A stretch of 64,000 nucleotides of DNA. It comes from Venturia oleaginea. Its lineage: Eukaryota; Ascomycota; Dothideomycetes; Venturiales; Venturiaceae. The notes under the pieces were generated by a model that made no database searches, was not told the origin of the DNA, and worked only from the letters and a program-made list of their open reading frames with translations. A program made the position numbers and the translations under genes. Below are positions 10,390 through 58,780 of this stretch, one piece after another (the first letter of the stretch is position 1; each line of letters starts with the position of its first letter). The stretch is from assembly GCA_013176395.1 (NCBI GenBank), contig JABMLP010000028.1, positions 463,281 to 527,280 of the forward strand, written 5' to 3'.

Positions 10390-10449
10390 CCCTTTTCACG
10401 ATAAAAGTCGGGCTGCTATTGTCTACGCAGCCGACAAACCTCACCAACT

Positions 10450-12024: not shown

Positions 12025-15000
12025 AAAGATGTTCATCAAGACACGACAACAAATCGAAACGACATGTTCTTCACATCAGTTCGGCAGTTCTAGGTTACTC
12101 AGAGAAATCAACAGGAGAGATTGATGGACCAGTAGACTCTAGACCAATCATAGTCCCAATTACACTTAATGAATCGATCAAAACCCTCGCCGTTACTGAT
12201 TCCTTTGCCACAGGAAGTTTCATAGACCTCGATTTTGCGCAATCCCACGGCTTTCCCTTTATTCCCCTCGAAAACCCCCGCCGCCTCAAAGCCTTTGACG
12301 GCGAACAGGCATCCTCTGCACCCTCTTACGTTACTCACGAAATCCACGTCTCCGTCAGAACCGGAGAACACCACCTCGAAACCACGAAATTCTTTGTTAC
12401 CCGTCTCGGCTCCGCAGCAGTCATCTTTGGCACTCCCTGGATGAACCTCCACGGTGTGAAACTCGATTTTGAGAATCGTAGTATTCACTTCGGTACCCAC
12501 TGTTCTAAGAAATGACTTCAGGGCCACAAGGGCTCTGTTGAGTATATCCCGCTCCCGTTTGGTGCCCGCGCACCCCCTCAAGAAACCCCGGACTCTCCTC
12601 GCGATTGGAAGATTGTCAACTCTCACGCTTTTCAATGGAATTCTAAGCAGCCCAATGCTCAAATCTACGCAATCAGTATTCAAGATATCGATAAATTTCT
12701 GGCGAAGAAACCGGATTACAAAGACCCTCGCCCCCAGTTACCCAAAGACCTTCACGACCTCGCGCACGCTTTTAACAGAAAAGCTGCTGATTCACTGCCC
12801 CCTTCACGCCTCGTCGACCACAAAATCGAAATTCAAGAAGACAAGAAAGACCAGTTACCCAACGCTCCTCTCTACGGTATGTCCCAGAACGAACTCAAAT
12901 GCCTCCGGAAATGGCTGGAGGAGAATTTGGGAAAAGGTTTTATCAGAAAAAGCCAGTCCGACGTCAGTTCCCCATGTATCTTTGTTAAAAAACCAGGTGG
13001 TGGTCTGCGATTCTGCGTAGACTACCGAAAACTCAACGCGATTACTCGAAAAAACCGATACCCTATTCCCTTACTCCGCGAAACCCTAGACAAACTCAGC
13101 AAAACCAAGTACTTCACGAAGATCGATATTATCTCAGCATTCAACGCACTCCGAGTCCACCCCGACGGCGTTCCTCTCACTGCATTCAGAACCCGCTTCG
13201 GTCTGTTCGAATCTCTAGTTATGAACTTCGGCCTCTGCAATGCCCCGGCGACCTGGCAGTCGTATATTAACGAACAACTTAAAGACTTCCTCGACGTTTT
13301 CTGCACCGCGTACCTCGACGACATCCTAATCTACAGCGGAACTCTCGAAGAGCATAAAATTCAAGTGCGGCAGGTTATCGAACGAATGCACGCAGCAGGA
13401 CTCAACATCGACATCGACAAATGCGAATTCTACCAGACAGAAGTCAAATTTCTCGGTTTAATTATCACAGACCACGGAATCCGGATGGACCCGGACAAAG
13501 TCAAAACAATCATTGATTGGCAATACTGTACCACTCGCCATGACGTCCAATCCTTCCTCGGTTTTGCCAATTTTTACCGCCGTTTTATTTTCAATTACTC
13601 CTCCACCGCGAAACCTCTTACCGACTTACTGAAAAAAGACAAGCCGTTCTACTTCGGCCCAAAACAGCGCGCCGCTTTTGATAAACTCCAAGAAGCCTTC
13701 ATCTCCGCACCAATCCTCGCACATTTCGACCCTACAAAGAAGTGTATTGTCGAAACAGACGCCTCCGACTGGGTAGGCGCTGGAGTACTCTCACAAATCG
13801 GCAATGACGGTTTGCTACACCCCGTCGCCTTCTTCTCTCACAAGTTCACACCCCAGGAGTGTAATTACGAAATCTACGACAAAGAACTCCTAGCAATCAT
13901 TCGCGCATTTGAAGAGTGGCGAGGAGAGCTCGAAGGAACTGAAGACCCGATCGAAGTTATTACAGACCACCAAAACCTCGAACACTACATGTCAACCAAA
14001 AAACTCACTCGCCGACAAGCCCGTTGGGCCGAATTCCTCTTCCAATTCCACTTCGAAATCAAATGGAGACCAGGAAAAGATACTACGAAACCCGACGCCT
14101 TGACCCGCCGCTCCCAAGACCTCCCCTCAAACGTATCCGACCCGCGTATCCAGCACCAGTCACAGGTTATGCTTAAACCCCACACACTTGACCCTAAGAT
14201 TCGAAAAGAACTAGCGCTCCAAGTCCACAATCTTTCATTATGCCCAGTTACGCTTCGTGACCACTCCTCTCCACAAGACTTCGAGAAAAACCCAGACTAC
14301 CGCGACTCTTCCGAAAATGACGGGGACGAATCCCTTGAGCCCCTCAACGATATATGGAACAAACCTAGCAACGACGCAGTAGCTGAAGAACAAATCCCAA
14401 CCACCCCGTTCTCCCCTCCGGACATATTCATCCCTTCGCAAGACCCAGACGACGAAGAGCTTATTTGGGACGAAGACAAGTTTGAAGAACTCTACGCTAG
14501 AGCGTTGACTAAAGACAAAGAACCACGCGAAGTCTTGAAAAAACTACGCGACGGCAAAACCCACCACCGAACGTTGCGGATGCAGGACTGCGAAGAACGC
14601 GACGGCCGCCTTTGGTATAAAAAGTGTCTATTTATTCCCCAAGACGATACACTACAAGCATACATTCTGAAAGCGAACCACGACTGTAATGTCGCAGGTC
14701 ACCCGGGTAAAGCTAACAACTTCCTCAAACTCCGCAAGTTCTACTACTGGCATGGCATGCACGCCACCTCGGACAAATGGGTCTCACGATGCGACGCCTG
14801 TCGACGCGCAAAACCGAGCAACCTAATGTACCAAGGACTCCTCAACACTCTCGAAGCCCCTCAACGAAAATGGGAAGACATCCAGATGGACTTCATTACC
14901 GATTTACCTGCTACACGCAAAGGAGGTAATACCTGCCTCTTAGTAATTGTCGATCGCCTCACCAAAATCAAGCACCTTATCCCCTGCCAAAAACTCCCAG

Positions 15001-16001
15001 AAGCCCGCGAATGCGCCTTACTCTTTCTCCAACACGTCTACCGCCTCCACGGCTTACCTCGAAGCATTATCTCCGACCGAGGATCCCAATTCGTTGCTAT
15101 CCTCTGGAAAGTACTCTGCAAACGCCTCGGAATCCGAATCCGCCTCTCTACCAGTTTCCACCCCGAGACAGATGGCGGGACCGAGCGAGCGAATGCCCAA
15201 GTCGAAATCTACATCCGTGCTTACTGCAATTATCAACAAGATGATTGGGACGAATGGTTACCACTCTGCGAATTCGTGATCAACAACACACCCTCCAATG
15301 CAACAAAACTCACACCATTTTTTGCCGCCTACGGCTACGATCCACGCTCCGGATTGGAAGCGCCAATTCAACCAGACCGTAACGCCTCTCGCCACGAAAT
15401 TACCGAGACACGAAAAGCTAATTCCATGGCTGACTTCATGGCAAACCTTGAGAAGATTTGCTACAACGAGATCCGCCACGCCAGCGCTACCTACGAATAT
15501 TTCAAGAACAAACATCGGCTTGGTTCTCCAAACTACAAAGTTGGTGACTGGGTTTGGCTAAACCTCAAGAATATCAAGACCACGCGCCCATCCAAAAAGT
15601 TCGACTGCAAGTTCGCCGGCAAATTCAAGATTCTACAAGCCCTAGACCACGACGCTTACAAACTCGAGCTCCCTACTTCTATGCATTGCCATCCCGTCTT
15701 TCATACAAATCTACTGCTCCCTGCCTACCCCCCTTCCGACAGGATGTTTCCAAACCAGAATGACTCGCAACCTCCTCCCGTCGATGTTGAAGAAAACGAT
15801 GGAATCTACACCCTGGATGAAGTCGTTGATTCACGATTCAACAAAGCTACGAAGAGATTTGACTACAAGGTTAAATGGGAAGGCTATTACTTACCGACAT
15901 GGGAACCCCTTCAATTCTTGCACAACGCAAAGAGCGCGGTTGATGAATTTCACCAGAGATATCCAAGAAAACCAAAACCAACCGGGTACAGGCCTGGTTA
16001 G
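12021..16001 (+). pseudogene. Gypsy pol polyprotein with one in-frame TGA
   Basis: One continuous frame encodes protease, reverse transcriptase, RNase H, integrase and a chromodomain, broken only by a TGA at 12513-12515 just after the protease. The protease motif reads DSFATG where DSGATG is expected. The reverse transcriptase has AYLDDILIY at about 13313, and RNase H starts with the VETDASDW motif near 13750. The integrase zinc-binding HHCC segment lies at about 14680-14820, and its catalytic residues are seen in MDFITD, SDRGSQF and GGTERAN. The C-terminal chromodomain (YKVKWEGYYLPTWEP, about 15865-15910) marks a chromovirus. Such domains usually steer integration to heterochromatin, which fits the location in a nest. 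With so little LTR divergence, the single stop could be a recent mutation or a read-through site. Confidence 0.9.
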
Positions 16002-16475: not shown

Positions 16476-18521
16476 TCAGCTTCTATCTCTAGAGGGTATA
16501 ACAGTCCTCAATCCAATCTGCCGAACAAACTCCAGATGCTTTGGTGCTGAAAGAGCCTTTGTAAGCCCGTCGGCCGGCATTTGATCTGTACTTGTCCAAA
16601 GGACCTCAATCTGGTCTTTTTGAGCCTCTTGCCGGAGCCAAAAATGGTGAACGTCGACGGGTCGGAGCTTTGTCGTTAAGTTTGGCGTAGGTTTGTTAAT
16701 GATGCCGACTGTCTGAATATTGTCGCATTTAATCTTGATGCCATGCTCTGGGTCAAAGTTGATCTGGTTGAAAAATCTTTGGAGGGCGATTAACTCTTTT
16801 GATGCTGTAGAGAGTGAGAGAAGCTCCGCTTCGGTGGTCGATGTTGTGACCGAAGTTTGCTTAGATGATTTCCAAGCGATTGGACCTTGGAAAGCTGAGA
16901 TGATGAATCCCTGAGTTGATTTCCGAGTTTGTTGGTCATCTGCGAATGAAGCATCACTCGAGGCGTCAATTACTGTCTCTCCTGGCGGAATAAGACGACC
17001 ATCGAAGAAAGGTCCAAGCCACTTTGTACCATTCAGGTAGCAAATGACCCGATCTGCCTCTCTTAGGTGCTCTGGAGATGGATTCATGCTGAATTGACTT
17101 AATACGCTAACTGCCTGCGCGATATCTGGCCGTGTAATGACAGCAGGGTGAATCAAAGAACCTATCCGCTCTTGAAATGCCATGGTCTGTTCCGGTGTGG
17201 CTATCTGATCGTACGGTTCAAGCGTGCGTCCCGAGAGTGGCGTTGTAGGTATCCTTGCGTGTTCTAGGTGGAATTTTGTAACTAGCTTCTCAATGTAGCT
17301 ATCCTGACAAAGATGGAGAGTCTTTGCAGCTCGATCTCTCGTAATTCGGATATTGAGAAAACTGGATGTCGTTTTGAGGTCTCGTACGTTGTACTTCGAA
17401 CCGATGCGGACCTTTAAGGCTTCAACCTCATGCCTAAGGTGCCTTGGTGCAACAATCAGGAAGTCGTCGACGTAGACGAAGATGAGAATCAGGATTTGGC
17501 GATGTACAAATAGACATTGATCTTCTTCACACGGTTGGAAATCAAGTGTGGTTAGGAAGGTCGATAGCTCTCCGAACCAGAGCTTTGAAGACTTTTTCAG
17601 GCCGTAGAGAGCCTTAATAAGGCGGTATACCTGTCCTTTTACCTCAAATCCTGGGGGACATTCAACGAAGACCACTTCGTCGAGCCATGCGTTGATGAAA
17701 GCGTTGATTGCGTCCAGCTGGTCGCAATCGAGGTCGAAGTAGGCTATGAGGGCGCAAACAAGGCGAAATGTCCGATATGCCCCGGTTGCTGCATAGAAGT
17801 CTGCTCCTGTGATCCGCTGTAGGTCTCCACGCACGCAGATTCTGGCCTTGAATTTTATGAGGTATCCATCAGCATCAGATTTATACGAGAACACCCACTT
17901 CAGAGGGAGGACTTGGGCGCTGAGTGGTCTTCCCACTAGCTCAAGTGTCCTTTGAAGTTGTAGTGCCTCTATCTCAACCTTAGCAGCAGCAAGAAACTCT
18001 ACGTGGTATGGATGTGACATCAATTCCTTCCAATTGCGTGGTTCCAGTGGCAGATCATCCCGATGTGCCCTCCGGAACATCATTGCAGCTGAGAATGCGT
18101 GGAAAATAGGGATATATGTCTCTGTTTGGGCCAATCTGGCGCAGTGTGCGGCCTCCCGGGTTTTGGTGTCTATTCCAAGGTAACTGCGTGCCTTTTCTGT
18201 AGGCTTTCGAGTCCTTCCGGAGCGCGATGGCTGTGTGAAGGAATCCTTGAGATGTTTCTCTTTGCCGTCTTTCTCCTTAAGCTTTCTTGTTGTGCGTGTT
18301 TGAGACGTGGATGACGTGGTCTGCGTTGCTGATGTATCCGCCGGTGTATTGGGTTGTGTTACACTTTGGATCGAATGCTCGTCTGATTCCGACTCGTAGT
18401 GCTCTTGTGACATAGGTGTGGGGCTAGGTGTTGGAAAAGGAGCAGTGTCTACCTCCTTGTTCGTTGGTGCCTGTAGACTGCATCTGGATTCCTGTCTGGG
18501 ACGGGATTGGCTCATCGTCAA
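16476..18521 (-). CDS. Copia pol, reverse transcriptase/RNase H part
   Basis: Second open frame of the copia element, read on the minus strand. The first part is a Ser/Thr/Pro-rich linker. The RVT_2-type reverse transcriptase begins around LPLKWVFSYK and carries the catalytic VYVDDFLIV motif near 17470. The RNase H part (DASSDASFADD...TSTTEAELLSLS) ends the protein, as is typical for Ty1/copia. It overlaps the end of the gag-integrase frame by 98 bp in a different frame. Many fungal copia elements have a single frame, so this overlap is either programmed frameshifting or one indel. No internal stop is present. Confidence 0.88.
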   Translation of the reverse strand: MTMSQSRPRQESRCSLQAPTNKEVDTAPFPTPSPTPMSQEHYESESDEHSIQSVTQPNTPADTSATQTTSSTSQTRTTRKLKEKDGKEKHLKDSFTQPSRSGRTRKPTEKARSYLGIDTKTREAAHCARLAQTETYIPIFHAFSAAMMFRRAHRDDLPLEPRNWKELMSHPYHVEFLAAAKVEIEALQLQRTLELVGRPLSAQVLPLKWVFSYKSDADGYLIKFKARICVRGDLQRITGADFYAATGAYRTFRLVCALIAYFDLDCDQLDAINAFINAWLDEVVFVECPPGFEVKGQVYRLIKALYGLKKSSKLWFGELSTFLTTLDFQPCEEDQCLFVHRQILILIFVYVDDFLIVAPRHLRHEVEALKVRIGSKYNVRDLKTTSSFLNIRITRDRAAKTLHLCQDSYIEKLVTKFHLEHARIPTTPLSGRTLEPYDQIATPEQTMAFQERIGSLIHPAVITRPDIAQAVSVLSQFSMNPSPEHLREADRVICYLNGTKWLGPFFDGRLIPPGETVIDASSDASFADDQQTRKSTQGFIISAFQGPIAWKSSKQTSVTTSTTEAELLSLSTASKELIALQRFFNQINFDPEHGIKIKCDNIQTVGIINKPTPNLTTKLRPVDVHHFWLRQEAQKDQIEVLWTSTDQMPADGLTKALSAPKHLEFVRQIGLRTVIPSRDRS

Positions 18522-21108
18522 AGAGTGTGTCCAAAATGACTTGATTTGCCGTATCAGACTCCTCGAGTTGAGTCAATCGAATTGTACGAGTTGCCTTTGA
18601 GACGTTGGCTGGTTGCTCTAGATCTTCAGAGGAGTATTTAGAAGCTTCGTCAATGATGGCGTCCCTAGTAGTAACAACCTCGTCTAGGAATGGAATCCAA
18701 ATGACATAGATGTTGCTTGCCGATGGACCGATGTAGAATCCGATCTCAGCTCGTGGTTCGAACTTCTTGCTGCGCTCTTTGATATCCTTTTTGACGTAAG
18801 CGCGAGATCCTGGTATTCGTAAGGCTGCAAGGTTCGGTTTTCGACCGTAGAGGACTTCGTACGGTGATTTCCAGCCAGAACGGGCCATTGGGGTTCGGTT
18901 GAGAATGTACACAGCTGATTTGACAAAATGTGGCCAAAGATGGTTAGGAAGACCTGCTTCCAGCATCAATTTCCGTGCTCTTTCGACAATCACTCCCCCA
19001 GAGCGTTCGGCAGATCTATTTGGCTGCTTAGTACGCACTGGAGCCTTTTCAATCGAAATCCCCCTATTCCTTGCAAAGGCATCGAACTCCGTCTGAAGCC
19101 CTGCTTCCGGATCTAGTCGGTAGACTCTTGTTGTATGTCCGAGGGTCTGCGTGATGTTGTATGCTTCCTCAAGGCAGAGAATAAGGTCTTCTTGCCGCTT
19201 TCGTGCAAGTGTCCAAGCCATGTGAAGTCCTGAGAACTGACAGTAGATATTTAACGTATACTGGTCGTTATTTAAGGCCTTCTCATTGTAAATAAGATCC
19301 ATGTGAAGTACCTCGAATGGGTAAGAGCCTTGATGCATGGGATATCTGGAGATTTGTTGATGTGACCGGGCCAAAAGGCACTCCTTACAACGAGGGTTCT
19401 CATTAAGGCGGTCGTGTGCAGGAGAATGAGTGAATTTGACTCCGTCAACGGCAGTTGGAAGCTGTTTCAGGGCTGAAAAGCCAATATGGCCCATTCTGCG
19501 ATGCCATCGGTCGGATGTCGCCAGAGAGGTGTGTTGTTGGTGAGAATTTACCGCAGCAACGCTGATCTGGCGAAACTGTTGGGTCGTGAGGCTGCTTGAT
19601 AGACATATGTCTAAAGGACTTGGTTCGAGGACGTAAAATCCTTGATGTTTGAAAATGTAAGCAAAGATTGTCGAACGGTCGTTGAGGGAACGCATGGTCC
19701 TCGTTGCGCCGTCGAAATACACTCCCTTAGCTTCAAACTTATCGTACGAAGCCAAGTTGACATGGAAACCTGGGATATAGGCAACATCTTGCAGAGTGAT
19801 AGTGCTTGTTCCTTCAGGGCTGTGGATAACGATTTCAACGGTGCCGTAACCTTTGATTTGGCCTTCGGTGTCCCCAAACAGGCATGTCTCGCTGCTGGTC
19901 GTGTGCTGGAAGGTCTTGAACCGGGATATGTCATGGCAGAGGTGTGTATCTGAGCCGCTGTCAAGGATGAAGCTGTCGTGAAGGCGGTTTGATGACTGTT
20001 CAGCCATGCTAGCTACCTTGCGAGCTAAAGTATGTGAGATCTGGCGCTGCACAGAGAAGTACTGAGGCTTTCCAGTGGCAGTCTGCCCCAGATTGGCGCT
20101 GTTTGTTGCTGCTTTTGGCGTTTCGGACGCAACCGTCGTCGTGGTCGTCAAAATCCAATCAGGCGGTGTCAAATGTATCCGAGCAAGGGTTTTTTGGATG
20201 AATTTAATTTTGTTTGGGTTCTTGATAAGATCATTGGTAATCCGTTGCTTTGTCGTAGCGTCTTCAGTCCATCCTGGTCCTCTCTTTGTAGTGTTGAGAT
20301 ATGGACAATCCACGTACCGCTCGCTTTGACCGCACACACAAGTATACGACCTGTTTTGATCCGATCTGCGTTCCGACTGACTGGGATTGTTGTATGTAGC
20401 TTGTCCTGGTCCAAGAACTGCTTGTGCTGACCGTACATTGTCGTTTATAATTGATCGGGTCATGTTTGCTGTCAACTCATACATCTCCACCAGTTTCTTC
20501 AGGGATGATGTGGACTTGGTCGTGGCTCCTAGATGCTCTGATAGAGTCTGAGTGACCATAGCTTGAGTGAACTCCGGATTCGATGCCTTTGATGCCTTAA
20601 TGAAGTCCTTGCAAAGTCGTTTCTCCGTTAACACTGTGCCGTCGATCCGTTTGGCCATATCCAGCAGCTTGAGCCATCGATGAAGCCAGATTGTGACATT
20701 CTGGGCCTTGGTGCCTCTGATAAGCCGTGCGTGCTCGTCCATGGCGTCTGTTTCCCGTTGATCGCCGTTGATGGCGACTGCATCTCTGATAGCTGTCAAA
20801 CGCTCGCGTGGTGACGGATCTAAGTCCAGGATATGCATCTGATATCCAGAGGAGATCGTCGTGGCGATTTGCGTCGAAACTTTGAGCAATTGTTCCTTCA
20901 AGCGTTCATTTTGAGCCACTTTAAGCTTAAACACAACGTCCCAGCCTGCTGGCTGATTGACCGGAAGCGGTATCTCATCAGGTACTTCATCTTCCCTGTC
21001 TGGATCGCAGTACTTCCAAAGGCCGAAGCTTTGTGCAAATGTCTTGATAGAACGGAACCAATCGTCGTAGTCTGAAGGCTTCTCGAGAGTGTACATAACG
21101 CTTGCCAT
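18424..21108 (-). CDS. Copia gag-protease-integrase polyprotein
   Basis: First open frame of the copia element, about 894 aa from the ATG at 21106-21108; the frame is open slightly further upstream but without another ATG. The N-terminal half is a UBN2/gag-type helical domain beginning with the usual ESW-like YDDWFRSIKTFAQ segment. A cysteine-containing segment (YTCVCGQ...CPY) replaces a classical zinc knuckle. The protease active site is LDSGSDTHLC (about residue 390). The integrase has an HHCC zinc-binding segment (HRRMGH...CKECLLARSH), a first Asp in VLHMDLI, a second in RLDPEAGL and a Glu in NRSAERSGG. The C-terminus overlaps the reverse transcriptase frame. Confidence 0.88.
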   Translation of the reverse strand: MASVMYTLEKPSDYDDWFRSIKTFAQSFGLWKYCDPDREDEVPDEIPLPVNQPAGWDVVFKLKVAQNERLKEQLLKVSTQIATTISSGYQMHILDLDPSPRERLTAIRDAVAINGDQRETDAMDEHARLIRGTKAQNVTIWLHRWLKLLDMAKRIDGTVLTEKRLCKDFIKASKASNPEFTQAMVTQTLSEHLGATTKSTSSLKKLVEMYELTANMTRSIINDNVRSAQAVLGPGQATYNNPSQSERRSDQNRSYTCVCGQSERYVDCPYLNTTKRGPGWTEDATTKQRITNDLIKNPNKIKFIQKTLARIHLTPPDWILTTTTTVASETPKAATNSANLGQTATGKPQYFSVQRQISHTLARKVASMAEQSSNRLHDSFILDSGSDTHLCHDISRFKTFQHTTSSETCLFGDTEGQIKGYGTVEIVIHSPEGTSTITLQDVAYIPGFHVNLASYDKFEAKGVYFDGATRTMRSLNDRSTIFAYIFKHQGFYVLEPSPLDICLSSSLTTQQFRQISVAAVNSHQQHTSLATSDRWHRRMGHIGFSALKQLPTAVDGVKFTHSPAHDRLNENPRCKECLLARSHQQISRYPMHQGSYPFEVLHMDLIYNEKALNNDQYTLNIYCQFSGLHMAWTLARKRQEDLILCLEEAYNITQTLGHTTRVYRLDPEAGLQTEFDAFARNRGISIEKAPVRTKQPNRSAERSGGVIVERARKLMLEAGLPNHLWPHFVKSAVYILNRTPMARSGWKSPYEVLYGRKPNLAALRIPGSRAYVKKDIKERSKKFEPRAEIGFYIGPSASNIYVIWIPFLDEVVTTRDAIIDEASKYSSEDLEQPANVSKATRTIRLTQLEESDTANQVILDTLFDDEPIPSQTGIQMQSTGTNEQGGRHCSFSNT

Positions 21109-21189
21109 AGCGGAAATGATCGCTGCCAATGCGTATAAAGCGAAGTAAAGGTCGGAGGTAAAGAAGTTAGAATTACTTAAGTAGTGTGA

Positions 21190-21202
21190 CCGGGCTCATA
21201 AC
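21190..21202 (-). promoter_or_regulatory. Copia primer-binding site, half-tRNA(iMet) type
   Basis: The plus strand reads CCGGGCTCATAAC right up to the LTR start at 21203. This is the anticodon arm of a methionine tRNA (GGGCTCATAAC), not a tRNA 3' end. Drosophila copia and yeast Ty5 use such an internally cleaved initiator tRNA as primer. Confidence 0.65.
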
Positions 21203-21613: not shown

Positions 21614-22007
21614 TGCTAGTGTCTATCTGGTGGAGCAAGGGCCTCGTCCGACCAAGCGACAACAACAACATGGCGATCTCGCATATCGCACGACTTCTGA
21701 GCCTTCTGAGGCTCGTCTTGTATCTAGATTCCCACCCGCCTACACCCTGTAGTCAACGTCTTATACGTGCGGGCAGTAGGGCACCTCATTTGCCTTCAAT
21801 CGAGAAGCAATTGAGCCGTGGGCATGCCATCCTGAGACCTACCCCGTGGCTGAAGCCCCGTGTGGCTGAGGAAGCCTGTATGGCTCAGGGCTCAATGGCT
21901 TGCTCGCTCACAATGAAAATTCACGTGCCCTGGCCTGCGTCCGGCCAATCAACAGATAAAACGTGCCAGATGACCGTGATCCGAAGGCGTGGCGAGATGG
22001 AGATAGA
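21614..22007 (+). repeat. Solo 394-bp repeat unit of the YR retrotransposon
   Basis: Same length and nearly the same sequence as 28470-28863, with only a few single-base differences noticed. It consists of segment A (21614-21730), m (21731-21770) and B (21771-22007). It is inserted in the pogo transposase gene. On either side the transposase frame resumes without loss or duplication of bases, so no target duplication was made. This is what recombination between A1 and A2 of a full-length element would leave, the counterpart of a solo LTR. Confidence 0.9.
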
Positions 22008-22979
22008 CGGCGAGAAGCAGACCACGTCAAGGAACTGGAGTATATGCGACGAGTGCGATGGCATGCAGAGAGTTGGAATCTTATTTTCGAGGCAGTAGTC
22101 CTTGAAATTCTGGCTGAGATGGCTCTCATGGCCGTCCAAGATAAGCAGCCTGTACCCCCCCACCTGCCGCGCCTTTGTATACGCGTCAAAATGCTTCAAC
22201 CACTCAAGACCAAGCGCGTTATTTGTCCAGCCATTCTCAGAGATTGAGAGCTTCCAATTCCGTGGTATATCTGCCTCCTCATACCACGCAGAGATGTGAA
22301 AGCGTTCTTTATAGATAATAAATGGCGGGGTCGCATACCCAGCTGCGCAGATGCTCTAAATAACCGTAACCCATTCGCGATCGCCCGGCTGGATGAGTTC
22401 AGGCCTTGTACGTCTTTCAGAGGCTGTGACGACCTTCATTGACCCAATAACGCCCATCTGGAAGCCAATCTCGTCAAAGTTGTGCGTATCCTCATCGTGG
22501 ACGCCGTACTTTGCTTTAATGTCTGCAACGAGCTTGAACCACGCGCCAATAATCTCTGAATCTTCCTGTAGTATTCTCTGCCTATCCTTTCCTCGATTGA
22601 AGGCTATTTTGAGCTCATCTGAGCGCGTTACGAATCTCTCAGCCCAGTTTTTGCCTACTGGCTCTCCACCGCGTATACCCAGTAGTTTATCCGCCATATC
22701 TGCCACCTCACACAGCCGGGGTGCGAATCCTCGCGAATTGAGATCGAGGATATATCGGATAATCGTTTGCTCTTCTATCGTAGTGAGCTTATGAGAGTTT
22801 GGGCGAGTTTGGGATAGAGAGGTGATTCCGCGGAGCCGATCAGAGAGCCTTTGGTGTTTAATGTTAAAGGCTGTAGCAGCGCGCCGTAGGCTTTGAAATC
22901 GACCAGAGGTATGAGCCTGAAGAGCGAGATCAATTCTACCTTCTTCTTGAACGGCTATCACGTTGCGTTGTTGAGACAT
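22008..22979 (-). pseudogene. Pogo-type transposase, N-terminal part with a stop
   Basis: Starts at the ATG at 22977-22979 (MSQQRN). The N-terminus has a psq-type helix-turn-helix, followed by a CENP-B/Tc5-type DNA-binding domain (RGFAPRLCEVADMADKLLG) and the DDE_1 catalytic core. The first Asp is in HNFDEIGFQMG, the second in LILDGHESHLS and the third in LDVVCFSP. At 22356-22358 a TAG stands where Gln is usual (VI*SICAAG), a CAG-to-TAG change of the kind made by RIP. The coding sense continues after it to the solo-repeat insertion. It is inactive because of the stop and the insertions. Confidence 0.85.
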
Positions 22980-23046
22980 TACGTGTTAAAGAGGAAAAGG
23001 GCTGTGCCAAGGAAAAGTGGCCGGCTCGGTGGTGGAATACGTTATA

Positions 23047-23583
23047 ACTAGAAGTAAAGTAATTATAAGGATAGCTAGGGGTAATAACTCCTAGCAAATT
23101 TAACCCCCCTACTATACTAATCCAAGTATTATTCGCGAGAAAATAATCGCCGAATTGGTAGTACGTGTTACGGGGAACTCGTTTCTCAACACAGTTGATT
23201 ATGTCAAGACCTTCTTGACACCCGTGTCCTCTTGTTCTAGTCCGCGGGTTTGGGGTAAGCGCAATATCAGTCTGGAAGTACTTACCTTAAGTACCTTCCC
23301 TTGCTCAGGTTCTTTGGAGGCTCACTAGATCCCAGCCGTCTGATGTATCTTTCAATTCAATTGTCGTCTAACCGATTTGATCCTCAGATCAATCCTGAAC
23401 GCTTGTCGGTTAGTATGAAGGTTTAGGGTGGGCTTGCTTCGTGTGCATGTGACTTGTGCTTGATTGTATCTAAGTAAAAGGTCGTTACTGTAGTAGGTTG
23501 AAGAAGCTTCTATGTGAGAAACATAACATGAGATAACTGCCAAGAGAGAAAGGAAGGTCCGTGCAACGTCCTCCCTATATACT
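23047..23583. other. AT-rich spacer between the pogo element and the YR retrotransposon
   Basis: No gene is recognised. It includes a short inverted motif (CTAGGGGTAATAACTCCTAG, about 23069-23088). The sequence resumes after the YR element at 28864, so this is the pre-insertion target. Confidence 0.4.
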
Positions 23584-23700
23584 TGCTAGTGTCTATCTGG
23601 TGGAGCAAGGGCCTCGTCCGACCAAGCGACAACAACAACATGGCGATCTCGCATATCGCACGACTTCTGAGCCCTCTGAGGCTCGTCTTGTATCTAGATT
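23584..23700 (+). repeat. Split direct repeat A1 of the YR retrotransposon
   Basis: 117 bp, starts TGCTAGTGTC and ends TATCTAGATT; it appears identical to A2 at 28470-28586. Confidence 0.92.
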
Positions 23701-23965
23701 GTTGTTGTAGGACTCGTCCTTCATCCCGATATTCTCCTTATCGTCCTACGAGTCTTTCCCGCCGCTGCGCGCGCCGCGCTTAGCCGTTCACCGCTTCTCG
23801 ACAGACTTTTCAAGTACACCGCTGGCCTCGACGACGTCTTGGGCATCGTTATATTGCACCAGCATCAGAAATCCCTTCCAAAGAGCTCCTTGGCATCTCT
23901 AGGGCTCTGTACTTATTAACAGAGCTGACCTGCTAACGATTTTAAATAGTTATACCGCTTTCTTT

Positions 23966-24399
23966 ATGCCTCCGAAGAAGGATATCACCGCGTCGGTTCC
24001 TATCAACTTATCCCTACCACCGGGTCACTCTACTCGCTCCTCTCGTACCCGATCCCCCTCTATTGTCTTCGAGACCCAGAGGTCATCTTCACGGTCGCGA
24101 TCAACAATGCCCAGGCCGCTGAGGCTCGCGCCGTAGAGGCTCACAGGCTAAGGATGGACCGCGAAAAGGAGGAGCGCGACCTCCAGATGCAGGTCAAACG
24201 CGAAGAAGCGGCGGCGCGCCTTGCAAAAATTAGGGAGGGCTCTTTACTAGAACTACCGCATGGCACCAGTCGTCCGGGGGCGACTGAGCCGGATAACAGT
24301 ACGGACTCACGTACGGCGCCTCCATCGGGATCCGCGAGCCTCATACGATTCGCGTACGCGGCGTTTCGAACAACTACTTCTCCGACGAGGCGACCGTAG
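23966..24399 (+). pseudogene. ORF1 (gag-like) of the YR retrotransposon, frameshifted
   Basis: An ATG at 23966 opens a Ser/Arg/Pro-rich frame that stops at about 24134. A second frame (24154-24399 and upstream to about 24080) continues with a helical, Glu/Arg/Lys-rich, coiled-coil-like segment. The two read as one protein if a single-base shift lies near 24070-24090. The position upstream of the reverse transcriptase corresponds to the gag-like ORF1 of Ngaro/DIRS elements. No zinc knuckle is visible. ORF1 overlaps the start of the reverse transcriptase frame (open from 24297) in another frame. Confidence 0.55.
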
Positions 24400-25826
24400 C
24401 CGAAGCTACGGGCTACGTTGCGAAGGAGCTGGCCGCCGGCCGATTGGCTATCTCTACAGACCCGGGCCTGTTTATCGCTCCTCTTGGGATGGTCCCAAAA
24501 CAAGACGGAACCTTACGCCGGATCCACGACCTCTCTTGGCCGCCCCAAACTTCAGTCAACGATGCCATTCCACGCGTGTTTGGCAAGCTACAGTACACCA
24601 GAGTCGACAGAATTGTTCAGCACGTCCTTCGTACAGGCCGGGGCTGTCTTCTGATGAAACGCGACATTGCGCACGCTTTTCGCAACATCCCTGTGGATCT
24701 CATTTCGTCCCGGTATCTTGGGTTTTGCCTCAACGGCGTCAATTATCAAGAACTCTGCCTCCCTTTCGGTCTCAGGACTGCGCCATTTATCTTCAATCTC
24801 TTTGCGGAAGGTCTCCATTGGGCTCTCGACGAGCAGGCCGGCACGCGCAGTATCCCTACCGCGATCGAGCACTACCTTGATGATTTTATGTTTGTGTGTA
24901 CGTCTCAAGAAATTTCGGACCGCGTTTCGGAACTCTGGATCAAGACCACCGATCGACTTGGGATTCCTCGCAAGGATGCCAAAGACGTGGTCGGCACGGC
25001 CGTCGAGATATTAGGTCTTCTGGTTGATACGGTACGCTTGGAACTGCGTCTCTCCGACGAGAAGAGAGATTCTTTGATCCAGGCTATCCGTGATCACCTC
25101 TCCGAGACAAGGCCGCGGCTCCGGGATACGAAGTCCCTCGCCGGGCGGCTCAGTTGGGCCAGTGCCGTCATCCGCCTTGGCCGGGTTTACACTCGATCGA
25201 TCTGGGACTACCTGAGCGGAGCATACGGAGAAGTCAATCGGCACTTTCGCCGAGCCCTGACTAGCGGTGTACGAGACGACCTTCTCTGGTGGCTCCATGC
25301 GCTCGAGCTAACCAACGGGGTCTACTTCTTCGATTATCGAAAGCGCCGTTGTTTCCACCTTTTCACTGATGCCTCCGGACAACAAAGCCTCGGCGGCTTC
25401 TTTTTCGAGTCCTCTGAGACCGATGTCTCTTGGGGGGATTACACCAATAGTATCGCAATCGAGCATGCTTTTATTGCTGAACCGTCCAATCGTTCGGCGT
25501 TTATCAACCCTAAGGAGATGGAGGCTGTTGCCGTCGCATTCCTCCGTTGGGGACCGTCTCTCTGGGCACATAATCGGGTTGTTATCCACTGTGACAACTC
25601 TACGGCCGTGGCCGGGTTGACGAAGGAGGCTGTTCGTGGTGAGAGCAACACCCATCTCCGCACTATTGTTACTCAGGCCGCTGCCTGCGATATTGTTATC
25701 GAAGCCCGCTGGCTTCCATCTACGGCTAACGGCCTGGCCGATGCCCTCTCTCGAGTCCAGTTTGATCGTATCGCCTGGCTCTGCCCCCAATGGGGCTCAC
25801 CGCTTTCGATCTCACAGTTCCGCTGA
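24297..25826 (+). CDS. Reverse transcriptase/RNase H of the YR retrotransposon
   Basis: Open for about 509 codons after a stop at 24294. There is no obvious ATG, so it is probably translated by frameshift or re-initiation from the overlapping ORF1. The reverse transcriptase shows KQDGTLRRIHDLSWP, the MKRDIAHAFRNIPV segment, the FGLRTAPFIFN segment and a YLDDFMFVC active site at about 24880. The RNase H follows with FTDASGQQSLGG, the Glu in KEMEAVAVAF, HCDNSTAVAGL and NGLADALSR, so all four acidic positions are present. This RT plus RNase H type is characteristic of DIRS/Ngaro elements. The last part of this coding region is the parent of the tandem repeat that follows. Confidence 0.9.
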   Translation, partial: QYGLTYGASIGIREPHTIRVRGVSNNYFSDEATVAEATGYVAKELAAGRLAISTDPGLFIAPLGMVPKQDGTLRRIHDLSWPPQTSVNDAIPRVFGKLQYTRVDRIVQHVLRTGRGCLLMKRDIAHAFRNIPVDLISSRYLGFCLNGVNYQELCLPFGLRTAPFIFNLFAEGLHWALDEQAGTRSIPTAIEHYLDDFMFVCTSQEISDRVSELWIKTTDRLGIPRKDAKDVVGTAVEILGLLVDTVRLELRLSDEKRDSLIQAIRDHLSETRPRLRDTKSLAGRLSWASAVIRLGRVYTRSIWDYLSGAYGEVNRHFRRALTSGVRDDLLWWLHALELTNGVYFFDYRKRRCFHLFTDASGQQSLGGFFFESSETDVSWGDYTNSIAIEHAFIAEPSNRSAFINPKEMEAVAVAFLRWGPSLWAHNRVVIHCDNSTAVAGLTKEAVRGESNTHLRTIVTQAAACDIVIEARWLPSTANGLADALSRVQFDRIAWLCPQWGSPLSISQFR

Positions 25827-25838
25827 ACTATTGTTGAA

Positions 25839-26829
25839 CCGTCCGATCGTTCGGCCTTTATTAACCCTAAAGAGATGGAGGCCGTTGCCGTTGCCGTTGC
25901 ATTCCTCCGTTGGGGACCATCTCTATAGGCATATCCGGCCGACGCCCTCTCTCGAGTCTAGTTTTCGATCGTATCGTCTAGCTGCCTCCGATGGGGCTCA
26001 CCTTTTTCGATCTCAGTTCCGCTGAACTATTGGTGAACCGTCCGATCGTTCGGCGTTTATCAACCCTAAAGAGATGGAGGCCGTTGCCGTTGCCGTTGCA
26101 TTCCTCCGTTGGGGACCATCTCTATAGGTACATCCGGCCGACGCCCTCTCTCGAGTCTAGTTTCGATCGTATCGTCTAGCTCTGCCTCCGATGAGGCTCA
26201 CCGCTTTCGATCTTACAGTTCCGTTGAACTATTGGTGAATTGTCCGATCGTTCGGCGTTTATCAACCCTAAAGAGATGGAGGCCGTTGCCGTTGCCGTTG
26301 CATTCCTCCGTTGGGGACCATCTCTATAGGTACATCCGGCCGACGCCGTCTCTCGAGTCTAGTTTCGATCGTATCGTCTAGCTCTGCCTCCGATGGGGCT
26401 CACCGTTTTCGATCTCACAGTTCCGCTGAACTATTGGTGAACCGTCCGATCGTTCGGCGTTTATCAACCCTAAAGAGATGGAGGCCGTTGCCGTTGCCGT
26501 TGCATTCCTCCGTTGGGGACCATCTCTATAGGTACATCTGGCCGACGCTCTCGCGAGTCTAGTTTCGATCGTATCGTCTGGCTCTGCCTCCGATGGGGCT
26601 CACCGCTTTCGATCTTACAGTTCCGTTGAACTATTGTTGAGCCGTCCGATCGTTCGGCGTTTATCAACCCTAAGAGATGGAGGCCGTTGCCGTTGCCGTT
26701 GCATTCCTCCGTTGGGGACCATCTCTATAGGTACATCTGGCCGACGCCCTCGCGAGTCTAGTTTCGATCGTATCGTCTGGCTCTGCCTCCGATGGGGCTC
26801 TCCGCTATCGTCCTTACAGTTCCGTTGAA
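25839..26829 (+). repeat. Roughly 200-bp minisatellite derived from the RNase H coding region
   Basis: Five tandem copies begin at about 25839, 26038, 26240, 26442 and 26642 (period 199-202 bp). Each joins the segment corresponding to 25482-25561 to the segment corresponding to 25736-25838, omitting about 175 bp between them. Each also carries an extra GCCGTT triplet-pair expansion and a TAG in place of TGG. It lies between the RNase H and recombinase genes and is non-coding in the pol frame. Confidence 0.9.
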
Positions 26830-26987
26830 TTCTTGCTATCCCGGGGATTGCAACTTTGGGCTTGGCGCGCTGTTCGTGGCAGCCGTTCTTTGCAGGCTCA
26901 TCGGCTTAAGCGCCATGCTACTCTGCTATCGCCGACGTTCGGCAGATACCCTGGTCGGACTCCGGTACTCGTACAAAGCTTGCTAAC

Positions 26988-28076
26988 GTGCTTCGTCCAG
27001 CACCTAGCCTCGAGTATACTTCCTACGATAGCGAGCTCCTCCCTACAGTTCATAGGTTCTTCCTCCGTACCCTTCGCGAGCGAAACCTTGGCCTCTCTGA
27101 TGAGTATATTACTCTCTTATGGTACGGCTTGGCCCAGAACACGCGCAACACGTACGGCGCGGGTATCAAGAGCTGGGAGAGGTTCTGTAGGCTGGAGGGC
27201 TGTGTAGACTATCCCGCAGAACCCCTCAATCTCGGCGAATGGATGGCAAGGCGTGTCATTACTGGAGGAGCGAAAGGCATCATTTCCGGCGCTACAGCGG
27301 CCAGCTACCTCTCCGCAGTACGTTCAAAGCATATCGACCTGGGATACCCTATCAGCGCGTTCGCTGATCCGATGCTCCTACGCGCAAGACAGGGGGCTCT
27401 CAACCTCAGGCCTCCGAAGCGCAAGAATAGGCTCCCTATTACTGTACGCATCCTTGAGGGACTGACGGCTGTGGAACCGACCACCGGAGCCGACCTCAAT
27501 CTCGACACTCTCTTCAAGGTGGCCTATGCTGGTTTCTTCCGCCTTGGCGAGCTGGCTTACACTAGAAGAGATAGGGAGCACCCGCTGTTCTCCTATACTC
27601 ACGTCTTACGGAGCGATATCGCCTTCCATCGTCATACGCCTAGCCATCAGCCTTACGGGGTCTCTATTTTCCTGAAGCGTAGCAAGACCGATTACGCTAA
27701 TCAGGGCGTTCCCATCTCCATCGCCGCAACGGGAAAACCTACCTGTGCAGTAGCCGCCCTGGTAAGACTTTTCAGGCACGATCCGAAGCCGCTTTCGGCG
27801 CCTCTCTTCGACATCGGCAAAGGGCATTGTTCGGCCGCTGCTGTACACATGCAACTACGCCGACGCCTCCTCGCTACTGGTATTATCTCCTCGCTGGACG
27901 ACAAGTCCTACACAGGCCATTCCTTCCGCAGGGGTGCTGCTACGGACGCAGCTGCGAAGGGAGTGCCTGAGCTCGAGCTTAAGGCAGCGGGTCGATGGTC
28001 CTCCGAAGCTTTCCTCCGTTACATATCCCGTTCGTTCGAACAGCAGCTTGCAATCAGTCGCCTGTTCCTGATATGA
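26988..28076 (+). CDS. Tyrosine recombinase of the YR retrotransposon
   Basis: A phage-integrase-family recombinase that would insert the circular DNA copy. The frame is open upstream of 26988 to at least about 26913 without an ATG; 26988 is a GTG. The N-terminal half is a SAM-like core-binding domain (NTRNTYGAGIKSWERFC). In the catalytic domain the conserved residues are visible: Arg in FFRLGELAY, Lys in KRSKTD, His and Arg in GHSFRRGAATDAA, the AAGRWSS segment in the second His/Trp position, and the nucleophilic Tyr in FLRYISRSF. No internal stop interrupts it. It ends 157 bp before repeat B1. How translation starts is unclear; perhaps by fusion to an upstream frame. Confidence 0.9.
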   Translation: MLRPAPSLEYTSYDSELLPTVHRFFLRTLRERNLGLSDEYITLLWYGLAQNTRNTYGAGIKSWERFCRLEGCVDYPAEPLNLGEWMARRVITGGAKGIISGATAASYLSAVRSKHIDLGYPISAFADPMLLRARQGALNLRPPKRKNRLPITVRILEGLTAVEPTTGADLNLDTLFKVAYAGFFRLGELAYTRRDREHPLFSYTHVLRSDIAFHRHTPSHQPYGVSIFLKRSKTDYANQGVPISIAATGKPTCAVAALVRLFRHDPKPLSAPLFDIGKGHCSAAAVHMQLRRRLLATGIISSLDDKSYTGHSFRRGAATDAAAKGVPELELKAAGRWSSEAFLRYISRSFEQQLAISRLFLI

Positions 28077-28232
28077 CACCGTTGTGTTCACCCGATCGCC
28101 AAAAGCTATACTCTGCTTCGCTACACCGCTGTGTTTCTCGCCTCTACCCTGGACCGAGTATGTCGTACAGACTCGCCTCCTATCCCACCTCGTTTCCTTC
28201 TTGTTTGTCTGGGCCGCAGGCGCTTCGCTTCT

Positions 28233-28469
28233 GGGCAGTAGGGCACCTCATTTGCCTTCAATCGAGAAGCAATTGAGCCGTGGGCATGCCATCCTGAGAC
28301 CTACCCCGTGGCTGAAGCCCCGTGTGGCTGAGGAAGCCTGTATGGCTCAGGGCTCAATGGCTTGCTCGCTCACAATGAAAATTCACGTGCCCTGGCCTGC
28401 GTCCGGCCAATCAACAGATAAAACGTGCCAGATGACCGTGATCCGAAGGCGTGGCGAGATGGAGATAGA
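28233..28469 (+). repeat. Split direct repeat B1 of the YR retrotransposon
   Basis: 237 bp, from GGGCAGTAGGGC to GAGATAGA. It matches B2 (28627-28863) and abuts A2 directly. Confidence 0.92.
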
Positions 28470-28863
28470 TGCTAGTGTCTATCTGGTGGAGCAAGGGCCT
28501 CGTCCGACCAAGCGACAACAACAACATGGCGATCTCGCATATCGCACGACTTCTGAGCCCTCTGAGGCTCGTCTTGTATCTAGATTCCCACCCGCCTACA
28601 CCCTCTAGTCAACGTCTTATACGTGCGGGCAGTAGGGCACCTCATTTGCCTTCAATCGAGAAGCAATTGAGCCGTGGGCATGCCATCCTGAGACCTACCC
28701 CGTGGCTGAAGCCCCGTGTGGCTGAGGAAGCCTGTATGGCTCAGGGCTCAATGGCTTGCTCGCTCACAATGAAAATTCACGTGCCCTGGCCTGCGTCCGG
28801 CCAATCAACAGATAAAACGTGCCAGATGACCGTGATCCGAAGGCGTGGCGAGATGGAGATAGA
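28470..28863 (+). repeat. A2-m-B2 terminal unit of the YR retrotransposon
   Basis: 394 bp: A2 28470-28586, a 40-bp middle segment 28587-28626 found only here and in the solo copy, and B2 28627-28863. Confidence 0.92.
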
Positions 28864-28891
28864 CTTCTGGTTATGGGTGCCAAGGTGTATT

Positions 28892-29136
28892 TGTAAGAGT
28901 TCAACCCTCAAAGGTGTCTCGCAAGTGAGATAAGACAGCTTGTATTTCAAAGTATCTAAGTGCAAGGGTGAAAGTGTAAGTACAGGAAGGATAGCTTGTA
29001 TATATAATCCTCCTCTTACAAATAGATCCTTCTAGAATGTATCTTTAAATGGAACATGACAGCTTGCAAAATAACAAGAGAACAATTGAGAATCCAGTCA
29101 TGGATAAGCTAGGGAGAAGGATTCCATCTCTTAACA
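28892..29136 (+). repeat. Solo LTR, family TGTAAGAG...CTTAACA
   Basis: 245 bp with TG...CA ends and a perfect five-base target duplication GTATT (28887-28891 and 29137-29141). A second copy of the family lies at 42076-42319 on the other strand. A TATATATAATCC box is present inside. No internal retrotransposon region remains. Confidence 0.9.
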
Positions 29137-30823
29137 GTATTCCCACACCTCTTGGCTCTTTCCACACTTCCCATATCCGTCAGATCTGTGGGCACTGCCA
29201 AGACCTGTGGGAACTGTGGAAATATCACGTGACTTCTGTACGTACCATTCTCCTTTAGGACTGACTCCGTCTCATCTTGTACGACCGAAGGATTCCCTCC
29301 ATCCTCAGACCTAACAACAACTTATTGTTATCCAACCATTCTTTGCGAGTCCTGCCGTTCCTGCTCTTCAACCTTGAGGTGATTTGTAACAGTACGCTAC
29401 AACGTTAGATAATTGTTACGGATACTGTAACGTGGAACGTTTAGTAACATGTATGGCGCGTTCCCTTTGTGATTAGTAAGTTGTTACACGGGATCGGAAG
29501 GATCATGTGAACGCTCGAGCCTTGGCAAAGCGAACGCTCGACACGCTCGATTGCGAGCGTTGTGAGCGCGCTCGATGCGCTCGATTGCGAGCGCCACGAG
29601 CGCAGGATTTCTTAGGAGATGGATCTCTATATAAGTCATTCCTTGCGTTTTGTGCTTGGCGCCTTGATGTCAGGAAAAGAGGTCGATCCGTGAGTTTATT
29701 AAGCTTTCGACGGGGTGTCTTCACCTTACAGCTTGTGCCGTCGTATAACGCCCAGCAATTCAATGGATGGACTATCAAGTCCTTCCACCTGTTCACTTTG
29801 GCGTGCCTATAACTTCACCGGCAATCAATTAGGGTCCTGAAGTTCTCTGCTGGCTTTATCTACTCAGGCCTCGAATATTTTAATATTACGAAAATTAAGT
29901 TCTATCGTTTGCTTTTTCCCGACTATCTATCCTAGCTTTCATAGTATATTCCGGAAAAGTGTTTCTGGAATCGGGAATGTCGAGTGTCTGTCGAATGGCT
30001 ACAACTTGATATTCCCCGCTGAGAATGAGTAAACGACACGTAAACCCAGTATCGTGCCAATGACGGTGTCTATGCTGGCAACAGGGGCCATAGTATGACT
30101 AGCGTTGGTGTCTCTGGAGCTGTCGAAGTTGGTTCCCTAGAAATAGCCAAAGGCGAGATTGTAACCACTCTCGATTCGCCCGTATAAGCTGCCTGCGACA
30201 ATTTGAATGATAGCTTGTCGTAATCGGCGGTGATATAAGCTACTCTTAGGATACAAACGAGTGGTGAAAAAACATTCTCGCTGTGTGTGTTGTGAACTAA
30301 GACCATCCAGATGAGGCAAGTGAGACATAATGGGGTCTAAAGGTGGTCGAGCATTTGGTACAACGAATGGCAGCAAGAGATTTTTCCCGAGGCCGGCAGA
30401 TCAAAAGTAGCAGCTTTTTCGGGGCGAGCTGTACTTCTGTATTAAGCTGAAATTGATTTATAGAGACCACTGCAATCGCAATGGAAAGGATGACTCAGCC
30501 GTCTTGAGGTCCTAATCCGTCTTACAAAAGTCGCCATGATTGGCCAGATTCTTGCTTTCATCTGCAGAGCGTCAAGGGGAAAGGGCTGTACTGGAGAGCG
30601 ACTGTGGTACCAGAAAGAGTCATGTGAGTCCTCCAGTGTGCCAATGGTAGATGATTCAAGCTTCTCATCGATCCTTGGATCTCAAATTTGTTGCGCCCTT
30701 GATGAAAGTCAAGTCTCTGACATGCATCGTTGCTCATGGAGACTTCGTGGTTCTTTATGCCTTGTTCCTAGTCTCTTCCATTATGCGTAATTCATGCCAA
30801 TCTCATATGCTCGTCATGAGACC
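29137..30823. other. Gene-free region with G+C-rich palindromic repeats
   Basis: No convincing gene. At 29414-29730 there is an LTR-like stretch (TGTTACGGATACTG... TATATAAG ... CACCTTACA), but I found no target duplication. At 29510-29605, CGCTCGATTGCGAGCG-type palindromes recur in a short array. The remainder is AT-rich with only shadow frames. Confidence 0.4.
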
Positions 30824-54519: not shown

Positions 54520-54819
54520 TTCGTATCGTTGTATCGTACAGTTTGTTGTCGTTTGGTATTGCAGAGTTCCTGTCAGACTGAATGTTTACAACCAGGGTGG
54601 CTTGTGGAGATGATCTTTTATCGTCATCGCTCTCAAGCACCACCAAGACCTGGAAGGCACACCCACGCGACAATTGACTGAGACACACGAACAATACGAA
54701 AACCGATGTAATTACGACGAATACCGATGACACCAATGATATAAAGCCCATAGGAGGGATCTCCTCTTCCTGCGCTCCCTCCAATACACCCACACCGCCG
54801 TCTTCTCTCCGTCCAGGCC
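54520..54819. promoter_or_regulatory. Divergent promoter region, ARO7 / MDV1-like
   Basis: A 300-bp gap between two divergent start codons (54519 and 54820) must hold both promoters. No specific binding motif was identified with confidence. Confidence 0.45.
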
Positions 54820-58034: not shown

Positions 58035-58780
58035 ACACACCACTGCAACGACTAGACAACCTCTCCCAACGTCTTGGCAAACCGTCCTGCTATAAGCTGT
58101 TGCCCAGAGCCTTGAGCCTCTCCCCAAACTGTTGCGTCCCAGTTATGGCATTGGTAAGAGTAGGTGCGCGACACAGTAAGTAGTAAGGACGCATAGAAGG
58201 AGCCTATTGGCGGCAAATCCCCTCCCTGTAAGCTAGCAGACGTAGCCTTGAGCCTCTCTCCAGACTGTTGCGTCCCAGTTATGGCATTGGCAAGAGTAGG
58301 AGCGCGATATAGCAAGTAGGGAGAGCGACTAGCAGCAGATAGGCTCCGACTATAAGACGACAGGTCTACAACACAATCGGTGCGACACGATACGGCAGCT
58401 GCTAGAGAACCTCATCTACTATCGTCTCCGCAAACCGTCCTGCTGCAAGCTGATGTCCAGAGCCTTGAGCAACTCCCCAAACTGTTGCGTCCCAGTTATG
58501 GCATTGGCAAGAGTAGGTGCGCGACACAGTAAGCAGTAAGGACGCATAGAAGGAGCTTATTGGCGGCAAATTCCCTTTCTGCAAGCCAGCAGACGTAGCC
58601 TTGAGCCTCTTCCCAGACTGTTGCGTCCCAGTTATGGCATTGGCAAGAGTAGGAGCGCGATATGGCAAGTAGGGAGAGCGACTAGCAGCAGGTAGGCTCC
58701 GACTATAAGACGGCAGGTCTATAGCACGATCGGTGCCATACAATACGGCAGCCACCAGGTAGCCTCGTCTACGGGCATAC
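58035..58780. repeat. Subtelomeric tandem repeat, 353-bp period
   Basis: Two copies start at 58082 and 58435 (CCGTCCTGCT...). Each copy itself contains two related sub-repeats sharing ACTGTTGCGTCCCAGTTATG. The minus strand is open through both copies and encodes matching peptides, which may be accidental or the remains of a repetitive protein. Confidence 0.85.

What the first reader, a model, noticed from the sequence alone, without database searches (positions are those of the whole stretch)
23584..28863. Tyrosine-recombinase retrotransposon with textbook split direct repeats
Seen: RT/RNase H and a YR recombinase with all catalytic residues, bounded by A1 - internal - B1 - A2 - m - B2. Segment sizes 117, 40 and 237 bp add up to 394, and A1/A2 look identical, so the copy is young. 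Known: this layout belongs to Ngaro-type DIRS-like elements. Inference: it is recently active, and the combination of an internal minisatellite and missing ATGs may make it a new family.
Basis: partly seen in the sequence, partly recalled or inferred. Interest (0 to 1): 0.9.

Follow-up and report, generated by a model that had tools for sequence, protein, structure and literature searches.

The report
Gag-deleted Ngaro retrotransposon family, recently amplified
This is a young copy of a jumping element that copies itself through RNA and inserts with a Cre-like recombinase; it has lost most of its coat-protein gene, apparently by a cut at an RNA splice site, yet dozens of such stripped copies have spread in this fungus, presumably with help from fuller relatives.

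Summary
The element spans 23584-28863: A1(117)-internal-B1(237)-A2(117)-m(40)-B2(237), with RT/RNase H and a Cre-fold tyrosine recombinase (YR). All 30 left ends and 28 distinct right ends read share the same boundaries; empty paralogous sites at three insertions show no target duplication. The host is Venturia-like. The architecture fits Ngaro; no tree against named DIRS/PAT references could be made.

It belongs to a subfamily (36 loci) that lacks 940 bp, and at 35 of them also 97 bp, present in gag-bearing relatives (24 loci). That removed the frame that leads into RT. At least 27 distinct flanks and 0.07% divergence imply recent mobilisation, presumably in trans.

New leads: the 940-bp deletion starts exactly at a gag splice donor (GTAAGT). 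A donor sits at the same gag position and phase in three Ngaro families of this genome, in frame with acceptor-like sites before YR. I propose that YR is made from a spliced Gag-YR mRNA. No RNA evidence was available.

The parts
23584..28863 (+). whole element, 5280 bp; gag-deleted Ngaro-type copy
   Evidence: boundaries shared by 30 of 30 left and 30 of 30 right loci; empty paralogs
23584..23700 (+). A1 repeat
   Evidence: identical to A2 over 117 bp
23966..24136 (+). ORF1 (gag) remnant: ATG frame of 56 codons ending in TAG
   Evidence: frame read; the L061 and L068 copies continue in an open frame
24093..24096 (+). point of the 97-bp deletion (GGTC microhomology at its edges)
   Evidence: alignment to L061; same junction at 35 loci
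24304..24305 (+). point of the 940-bp deletion; left edge is exactly the base before GTAAGT of gag-bearing copies
   Evidence: same junction at 36 loci
24297..25826 (+). reverse transcriptase / RNase H ORF (stop to stop), RT N-terminus lost
   Evidence: Pfam RVT_1 9e-12; homologs
25736..26829 (+). internal minisatellite, about 202-bp unit derived from the RNase H 3' end; copy number varies between element copies
26910..28076 (+). tyrosine recombinase ORF (stop to stop, no early ATG)
26983..27000 (+). proposed branch point (CTAAC) and 3' splice site (CAG) for YR; next exon would start at 27001
   Evidence: inference
28233..28469 (+). B1 repeat
   Evidence: identical to B2 over 237 bp
28470..28586 (+). 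A2 repeat
28463..28484 (+). B1|A2 junction AGATAGA-TGCTAGTG-TCTATCT, proposed YR core site
   Evidence: sequence; function inferred
28587..28626 (+). m segment, 40 bp
   Evidence: 22 and 4 of 26 copies carry two variants differing by one base
28627..28863 (+). B2 repeat

Best explanation
The window holds a young, non-autonomous, gag-deleted copy of a Ngaro-type retrotransposon in a Venturia-like ascomycete. Gag-bearing relatives with the same termini supply the proteins in trans (inferred). The RNA is copied into a circle whose B2-A1 joint repeats the internal B1-A2 junction (inferred from the layout and the published model). The YR recombines that joint, AGATAGA-8 bp-TCTATCT (inferred), into a site that is A/T-rich just left of the insertion point, with no target duplication (shown at three sites). 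The founder of the subfamily lost 940 bp of gag and the RT N-terminus, probably through RNA cut at a gag splice donor (inferred from the edge), and then 97 bp more.
For: Same termini in gag-bearing and gag-deleted copies. One 940-bp junction at 36 loci against 24 loci that keep the right edge of that segment. 27 distinct left flanks among 30 loci that carry both deletions. Mean pairwise difference 0.072% over 2100 bp in 26 copies, four of 30 set aside. Empty paralogous sites at three insertions without duplication or loss. YR fold and residues. Left edge of the deletion exactly at the only GTAAGT, right edge 12 nt after the only CTAAC, of the 1751 bp read in L068.
Against: Trans-mobilisation is not observed directly: RT/RH and YR frames of gag-deleted copies are still open (YR 388 residues in 26 of 30 right loci, which include gag-bearing ones; two loci too short, two with part of YR lost), so some unusual expression cannot be excluded. 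Some loci share flanks through duplication (C16/C16, C14/C49, C6/C7). The right edge of the deletion is TAT, not AG, in 24 of 24 gag-bearing copies. No circle or RNA was seen.
Confidence: 0.8

Rival explanations
1. The gag-deleted element is autonomous as it stands: RT and YR are translated without ATG (frameshift, reinitiation or non-AUG start) and gag is not needed.
For: RT/RH and YR frames are open in the window copy; gag-deleted junctions (36 loci) outnumber gag-bearing right edges (24 loci).
Against: Gag is present in the gag-bearing copies and in the two other families read; the RT N-terminus is gone; copies are so young that open frames say little; 11 gag-bearing loci with RT frames of only 294 residues also exist, which suggests that help in trans is common here.
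Confidence: 0.12
2. The 940-bp deletion is an ordinary DNA deletion or a template jump during reverse transcription, and its coincidence with a splice donor is chance.
For: The right edge is not AG in 24 of 24 gag-bearing copies; the 97-bp deletion has GGTC microhomology, as expected of slippage.
Against: The left edge coincides to the base with the only GTAAGT of 1751 bp, and the right edge lies 12 nt after the only CTAAC; no microhomology at this junction; the donor is at the same gag position in three families.
Confidence: 0.35
3. YR is not spliced: it is reached by reinitiation, or starts at its own ATG in families 2 and 3, and the donor and acceptor motifs reflect protein coding.
For: Families 2 and 3 have an ATG at the YR core; proposed introns of 2.3-2.4 kb there are long for fungi (general knowledge); the dual-coding test was inconclusive (6 of 12 against 139 of 312 synonymous matches); no copy with the proposed spliced joint exists.
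Against: Phase-1 donor exactly 28 residues before the same gag motif in three families; acceptor-like sites in matching phase before YR in all three; family 1 has no ATG before residue 112 of the YR ORF.
Confidence: 0.5
4. The repeats arose by unrelated duplications and the copies by segmental duplication rather than transposition.
For: Some loci do share flanks: C34 copies about 32 kb apart, C14/C49, C16/C16, C6/C7.
Against: 27 distinct flanks among 30 left loci, all breaking at the same base, and empty sites.
Confidence: 0.02

Closest known systems
Ngaro retrotransposons of fungi (PMC3783388; introduction, first part of results, Ngaro characterization and discussion read)
   Same: A-pol-B-A-B repeats, RT, RNase H and YR, no methyltransferase hit, YR downstream of RT-RH
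   Different: Ascomycete host (that paper found one truncated Ngaro in Ascomycota), 40-bp m between A2 and B2 (not mentioned in the parts read), internal minisatellite, gag-deleted subfamily
Ngaro type 2b of Cafeteria burkhardae (PMC8547959; passages and the Ngaro section read)
   Same: A1-[ORFs]-B1A2B2 layout; deletion variants lacking ORF1 beside fuller copies
   Different: There about 2-kb 5' deletions linked to a change of insertion preference; here an internal 940-bp deletion edged by a splice donor, in a fungus. A link to insertion preference was not established here
Complete Ngaro family of Zymoseptoria tritici (PMC4502367; passages read)
   Same: Ngaro in a Dothideomycete, so Ngaro in Ascomycota is not new
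Unnamed metagenome relative (P0001 and P0121, both on a contig listed as 7158 bases; taken as one contig by equal length and source)
   Same: RT 66% and YR 67% identical; nearest in both trees at 100/100
   Different: Its DNA could not be fetched, so repeats and splice sites are unknown
Cre recombinase
   Different: Far in sequence (best stretch E 0.0045); target sites here share only A/T richness, not a fixed site

Membership tests
Ngaro | Split direct repeats A1-ORFs-B1-A2-B2 with the internal repeats downstream of YR | tested here: met
   an extra 40-bp m lies between A2 and B2
Ngaro | RT and RNase H followed by a tyrosine recombinase | tested here: met
Ngaro | No methyltransferase domain | tested here: met
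   no methyltransferase family listed at E up to 1 for the ORFs given to Pfam
Ngaro | Insertion without target site duplication | tested here: met
   three insertions with empty paralogs
Ngaro | RT and YR group with named Ngaro rather than DIRS, PAT or VIPER | tested here: inconclusive
   RT and YR agree on the nearest relative, and RT hits include an Aspergillus fischeri protein at 40%, a species in which PMC3783388 reports a Ngaro; no named DIRS, PAT or VIPER rows were available
Ngaro | Gag-like ORF1 | tested here: not met
   lost in the window copy and its subfamily; present in gag-bearing relatives. ORF1-less Ngaro variants are described, so this lowers 'complete Ngaro element', not the lineage
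DIRS1-like | Inverted terminal repeats and methyltransferase | tested here: not met
   no inverted repeat pairs of 20 bp or more at 22000-30500; no methyltransferase hit
PAT-like | Split direct repeats plus methyltransferase in pol | tested here: not met
   no methyltransferase hit

The most novel reading that the evidence does not exclude
In these Ngaro elements YR is made from a spliced subgenomic mRNA that fuses the N-terminal part of Gag in frame to YR, with RT reached by read-through of the Gag UAG; aberrant use of the same gag donor yields gag-less RNAs which, once copied and integrated, found parasitic subfamilies that outnumber their source.
Probability: 0.42. Interest if true: 0.75.

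Novelty: new variant of a known kind. Interest (0 to 1): 0.52.

Why it matters
How such elements make a recombinase whose ORF has no early ATG, and how gag-less versions arise and spread, is not explained in the papers and passages read here. This genome holds gag-bearing and stripped copies side by side, with sharp boundaries, empty sites and two further families, so splicing, read-through and help in trans become directly testable with RNA reads and strain comparisons. It also shows a young element without RIP signs by two indices in a genus where most TEs are reported as RIPped (PMC6686934).

Tried and rejected
Target motif: left-flank similarity to GAGATAGA looked significant in 27 sites (1 of 136 shifted controls as high) but failed in 14 independent gag-bearing sites (87 of 136); dropped. 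Right-flank similarity to TGCTAGTG (0 of 136, 24 sites) was not tested in a second set and is not relied on. What held in both left sets is A/T richness (80% at -5 to -3 in 41 sites, background 55%) and rare G at -1 (1 of 41). A weak palindrome with a 6-bp spacer (13 of 2000 permutations) disagrees with the 8-bp spacer of the element's own junction and is left open.

Dual-coding test of the YR start in families 2 and 3: inconclusive (6 of 12 against 139 of 312). Copies with the donor joined to the YR acceptor: 0 found, which neither supports nor excludes splicing. The 97-bp loss as an intron: GT..CTGAC..CAG fits loosely, but the donor GTCTCT is weak and GGTC microhomology explains it equally well. 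Termini of families 2 and 3: no shared repeats of 16 bp or more in the pieces compared; the pieces may not reach the ends. 5.8S rRNA for naming the host: none found. Relatives in genome contigs and viral contigs: none. Rfam at gathering threshold: nothing in the window, L028 or L030. RIP indices gave no sign of RIP in the element.
Full report
What was checked. In the assembly that holds the window (46 Mb, 61 contigs) a right-end query gave 43 rows (three partial, some overlapping in tandem places) and a left-end query 46 rows at 40 loci; both are capped lower bounds. All 30 left loci and all 30 right loci fetched (28 distinct right places) break at the same bases. 27 of the 30 left flanks are distinct, and 24 right flanks among those of 60 nt or more.

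Host. The Mdv1-like WD-repeat ORF at 54678-56594 is 96% identical over 86% of its length to Venturia inaequalis, so the host is Venturia or a near relative (Dothideomycetes). The window ends in TTAGGG repeats.

Integration. For three insertions (the window's, C6:1196676, C12:42725) a paralogous repeat without the element was among the sequences held; the joined flanks run through it without duplication or loss, apart from single-base differences. The repeat hit by the window copy has 40 scored matches that cross the insertion point (of 291 candidates, 40 scored). The B|A junction is an inverted repeat, AGATAGA around TGCTAGTG, as expected of a YR core site; its use is inferred. Left of the insertion point targets are A/T-rich. 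The YR is Cre-like in predicted fold.

Two deletions. A search with a piece of a Talaromyces Gag-RT protein found loci with the same left end but with a Gag frame. The copy L068 has a Gag of 403 codons from its ATG with a CCCH-finger-like end (Pfam E 0.006, below cut-off), then TAG, then RT in the same frame. The same gag-TAG-RT order is seen in family 2, and family 3 also has TAG right before the RT frame. Relative to L068 the window lacks 97 and 940 bp. The 940-bp junction occurs at 36 loci and the 97-bp junction at 35 of these same loci. The one without the second is L061, so the 940-bp loss probably came first. The right edge of the 940-bp segment is kept at 24 loci, the left edge at 20 (19 exact, one with a mismatch). 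At 5 of the 24, the base next to the right edge is the one that makes the junction exact without added bases.

Age and help. Twenty-six gag-deleted left parts (four of 30 set aside: two with indels, two of a diverged pair) differ by 0.072% on average. A1 and A2 agree fully in 20 of 21 copies and B1 and B2 in 22 of 26 (four tandem loci left out). The gag-less founder thus spread recently to at least 27 flanks. Since it lacks most of Gag, the frame leading to RT and the gag donor, I infer help from gag-bearing copies. Eleven gag-bearing loci have RT frames of only 294 residues, against 561 at seven, a second sign that help is common.

Minisatellite. Of 24 gag-deleted copies with both ends placed have lengths at 5280 bp plus 0 to 5 steps of about 200 bp (an extra 394-bp repeat unit was subtracted in two); the exception, 4956 bp, has lost part of YR. 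Array sequence precedes YR in gag-bearing L024, L028, L030 as well. Whether slippage happens at reverse transcription or in DNA is open.

Splicing proposal. In family 1 no ATG precedes residue 112 of the YR ORF, and CTAAC-N10-CAG stands at 26983-27000, just before the part of YR shared with relatives; it is kept in 26 of 30 right loci (two too short, two deleted). The only GTAAGT in L068 lies in gag in phase 1, and an exon starting at 27001 needs phase 1. Two further families of this genome were read (RT 59% identical to each other, 41% between families 1 and 2). Each has a phase-1 GTGAGT in gag, and in all three the donor lies exactly 28 residues before the [GK]TF.P.NL motif, with acceptor-like sites before YR in the matching phase. 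Synonymous shuffles give a phase-1 GTRAGT in 30%, 5.5% and 38% of shuffles, and at the same codon in 15%, 3.8% and 15%; these tests were made after seeing the sites, and families 2 and 3 are related. Five older family-3 copies (92.7-97.4% identical in gag) keep the donor in 5 of 5; the acceptor was covered in four, and all four keep TGGCAG, one with a changed branch motif. The edges of the 940-bp deletion are independent evidence: left edge exactly at the donor, right edge 12 nt after the only CTAAC in the 1751 bp read.

Against it: the right edge is TAT, not AG, in 24 of 24; the proposed introns are long for fungi; families 2 and 3 have an ATG at the YR core; no spliced-joint copy was found; the dual-coding test was inconclusive; no RNA was available.

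Relatives. RT and YR searches gave 535 and 420 hits (capped candidates, best 120 listed). Named RT relatives among the listed are Talaromyces, Aspergillus fischeri and Penicillium; a named YR relative is Collybiopsis. In trees of 16 RT and 11 YR sequences chosen by me, family 1 joins the 7158-base contig and family 2 joins family 3 at 100/100 in both.

Known and new. Ngaro layout: PMC3783388, PMC8547959. Ngaro in Ascomycota: Zymoseptoria (PMC4502367) and, in a repeat table, Sporothrix (PMC9281073). ORF1-less Ngaro: Cafeteria. PMC6686934 names neither DIRS nor Ngaro in its main text. The literature searches listed no paper whose title or abstract start speaks of spliced YR expression in Ngaro; I read only the papers named here, and most subscription papers, probably including the original Ngaro descriptions (recalled), are not held.

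Noticed in passing
G000:C34:1370172, 1402204, 1434267, 1466356 (L028-L030, L096, L097): Element right ends about 32 kb apart with the same flanks where read: a roughly 32-kb segment seems repeated in tandem.
   Followed up: partly
G000:C14:1089946, C34:12, C36:600: Tandem B-A-m-B-A-m-B right ends, one unit (394 bp) more than usual; C36 only from the match positions.
   Followed up: partly
window 23484-28891: The element sits inside another repeat with at least 40 copies that cross the insertion point; the repeat seems to end at 28891.
   Followed up: partly
L009, L010 (C59:513704, C59:429472): A sublineage in which the minisatellite is joined to 27324, losing the N-terminal part of YR.
   Followed up: no
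window 23925-23949: A second acceptor-like site (CTAAC...TAG) shortly before the gag ATG, possibly a 5' leader intron.
   Followed up: no
L062-L067, L085-L089: Two further Ngaro families in the same genome, with gag, TAG, RT in one frame and an overlapping YR frame.
   Followed up: partly
window 10405-16001 (+) and 16476-21195 (-): Long Gypsy-type and Copia-type retrotransposon ORFs next to the element (types judged by eye).
   Followed up: no
window 58070-58752: 353-bp unit repeated 1.9 times at 91%.
   Followed up: no
window 63805-64000: TTAGGG repeat, 32.7 perfect copies: a chromosome end.
   Followed up: no
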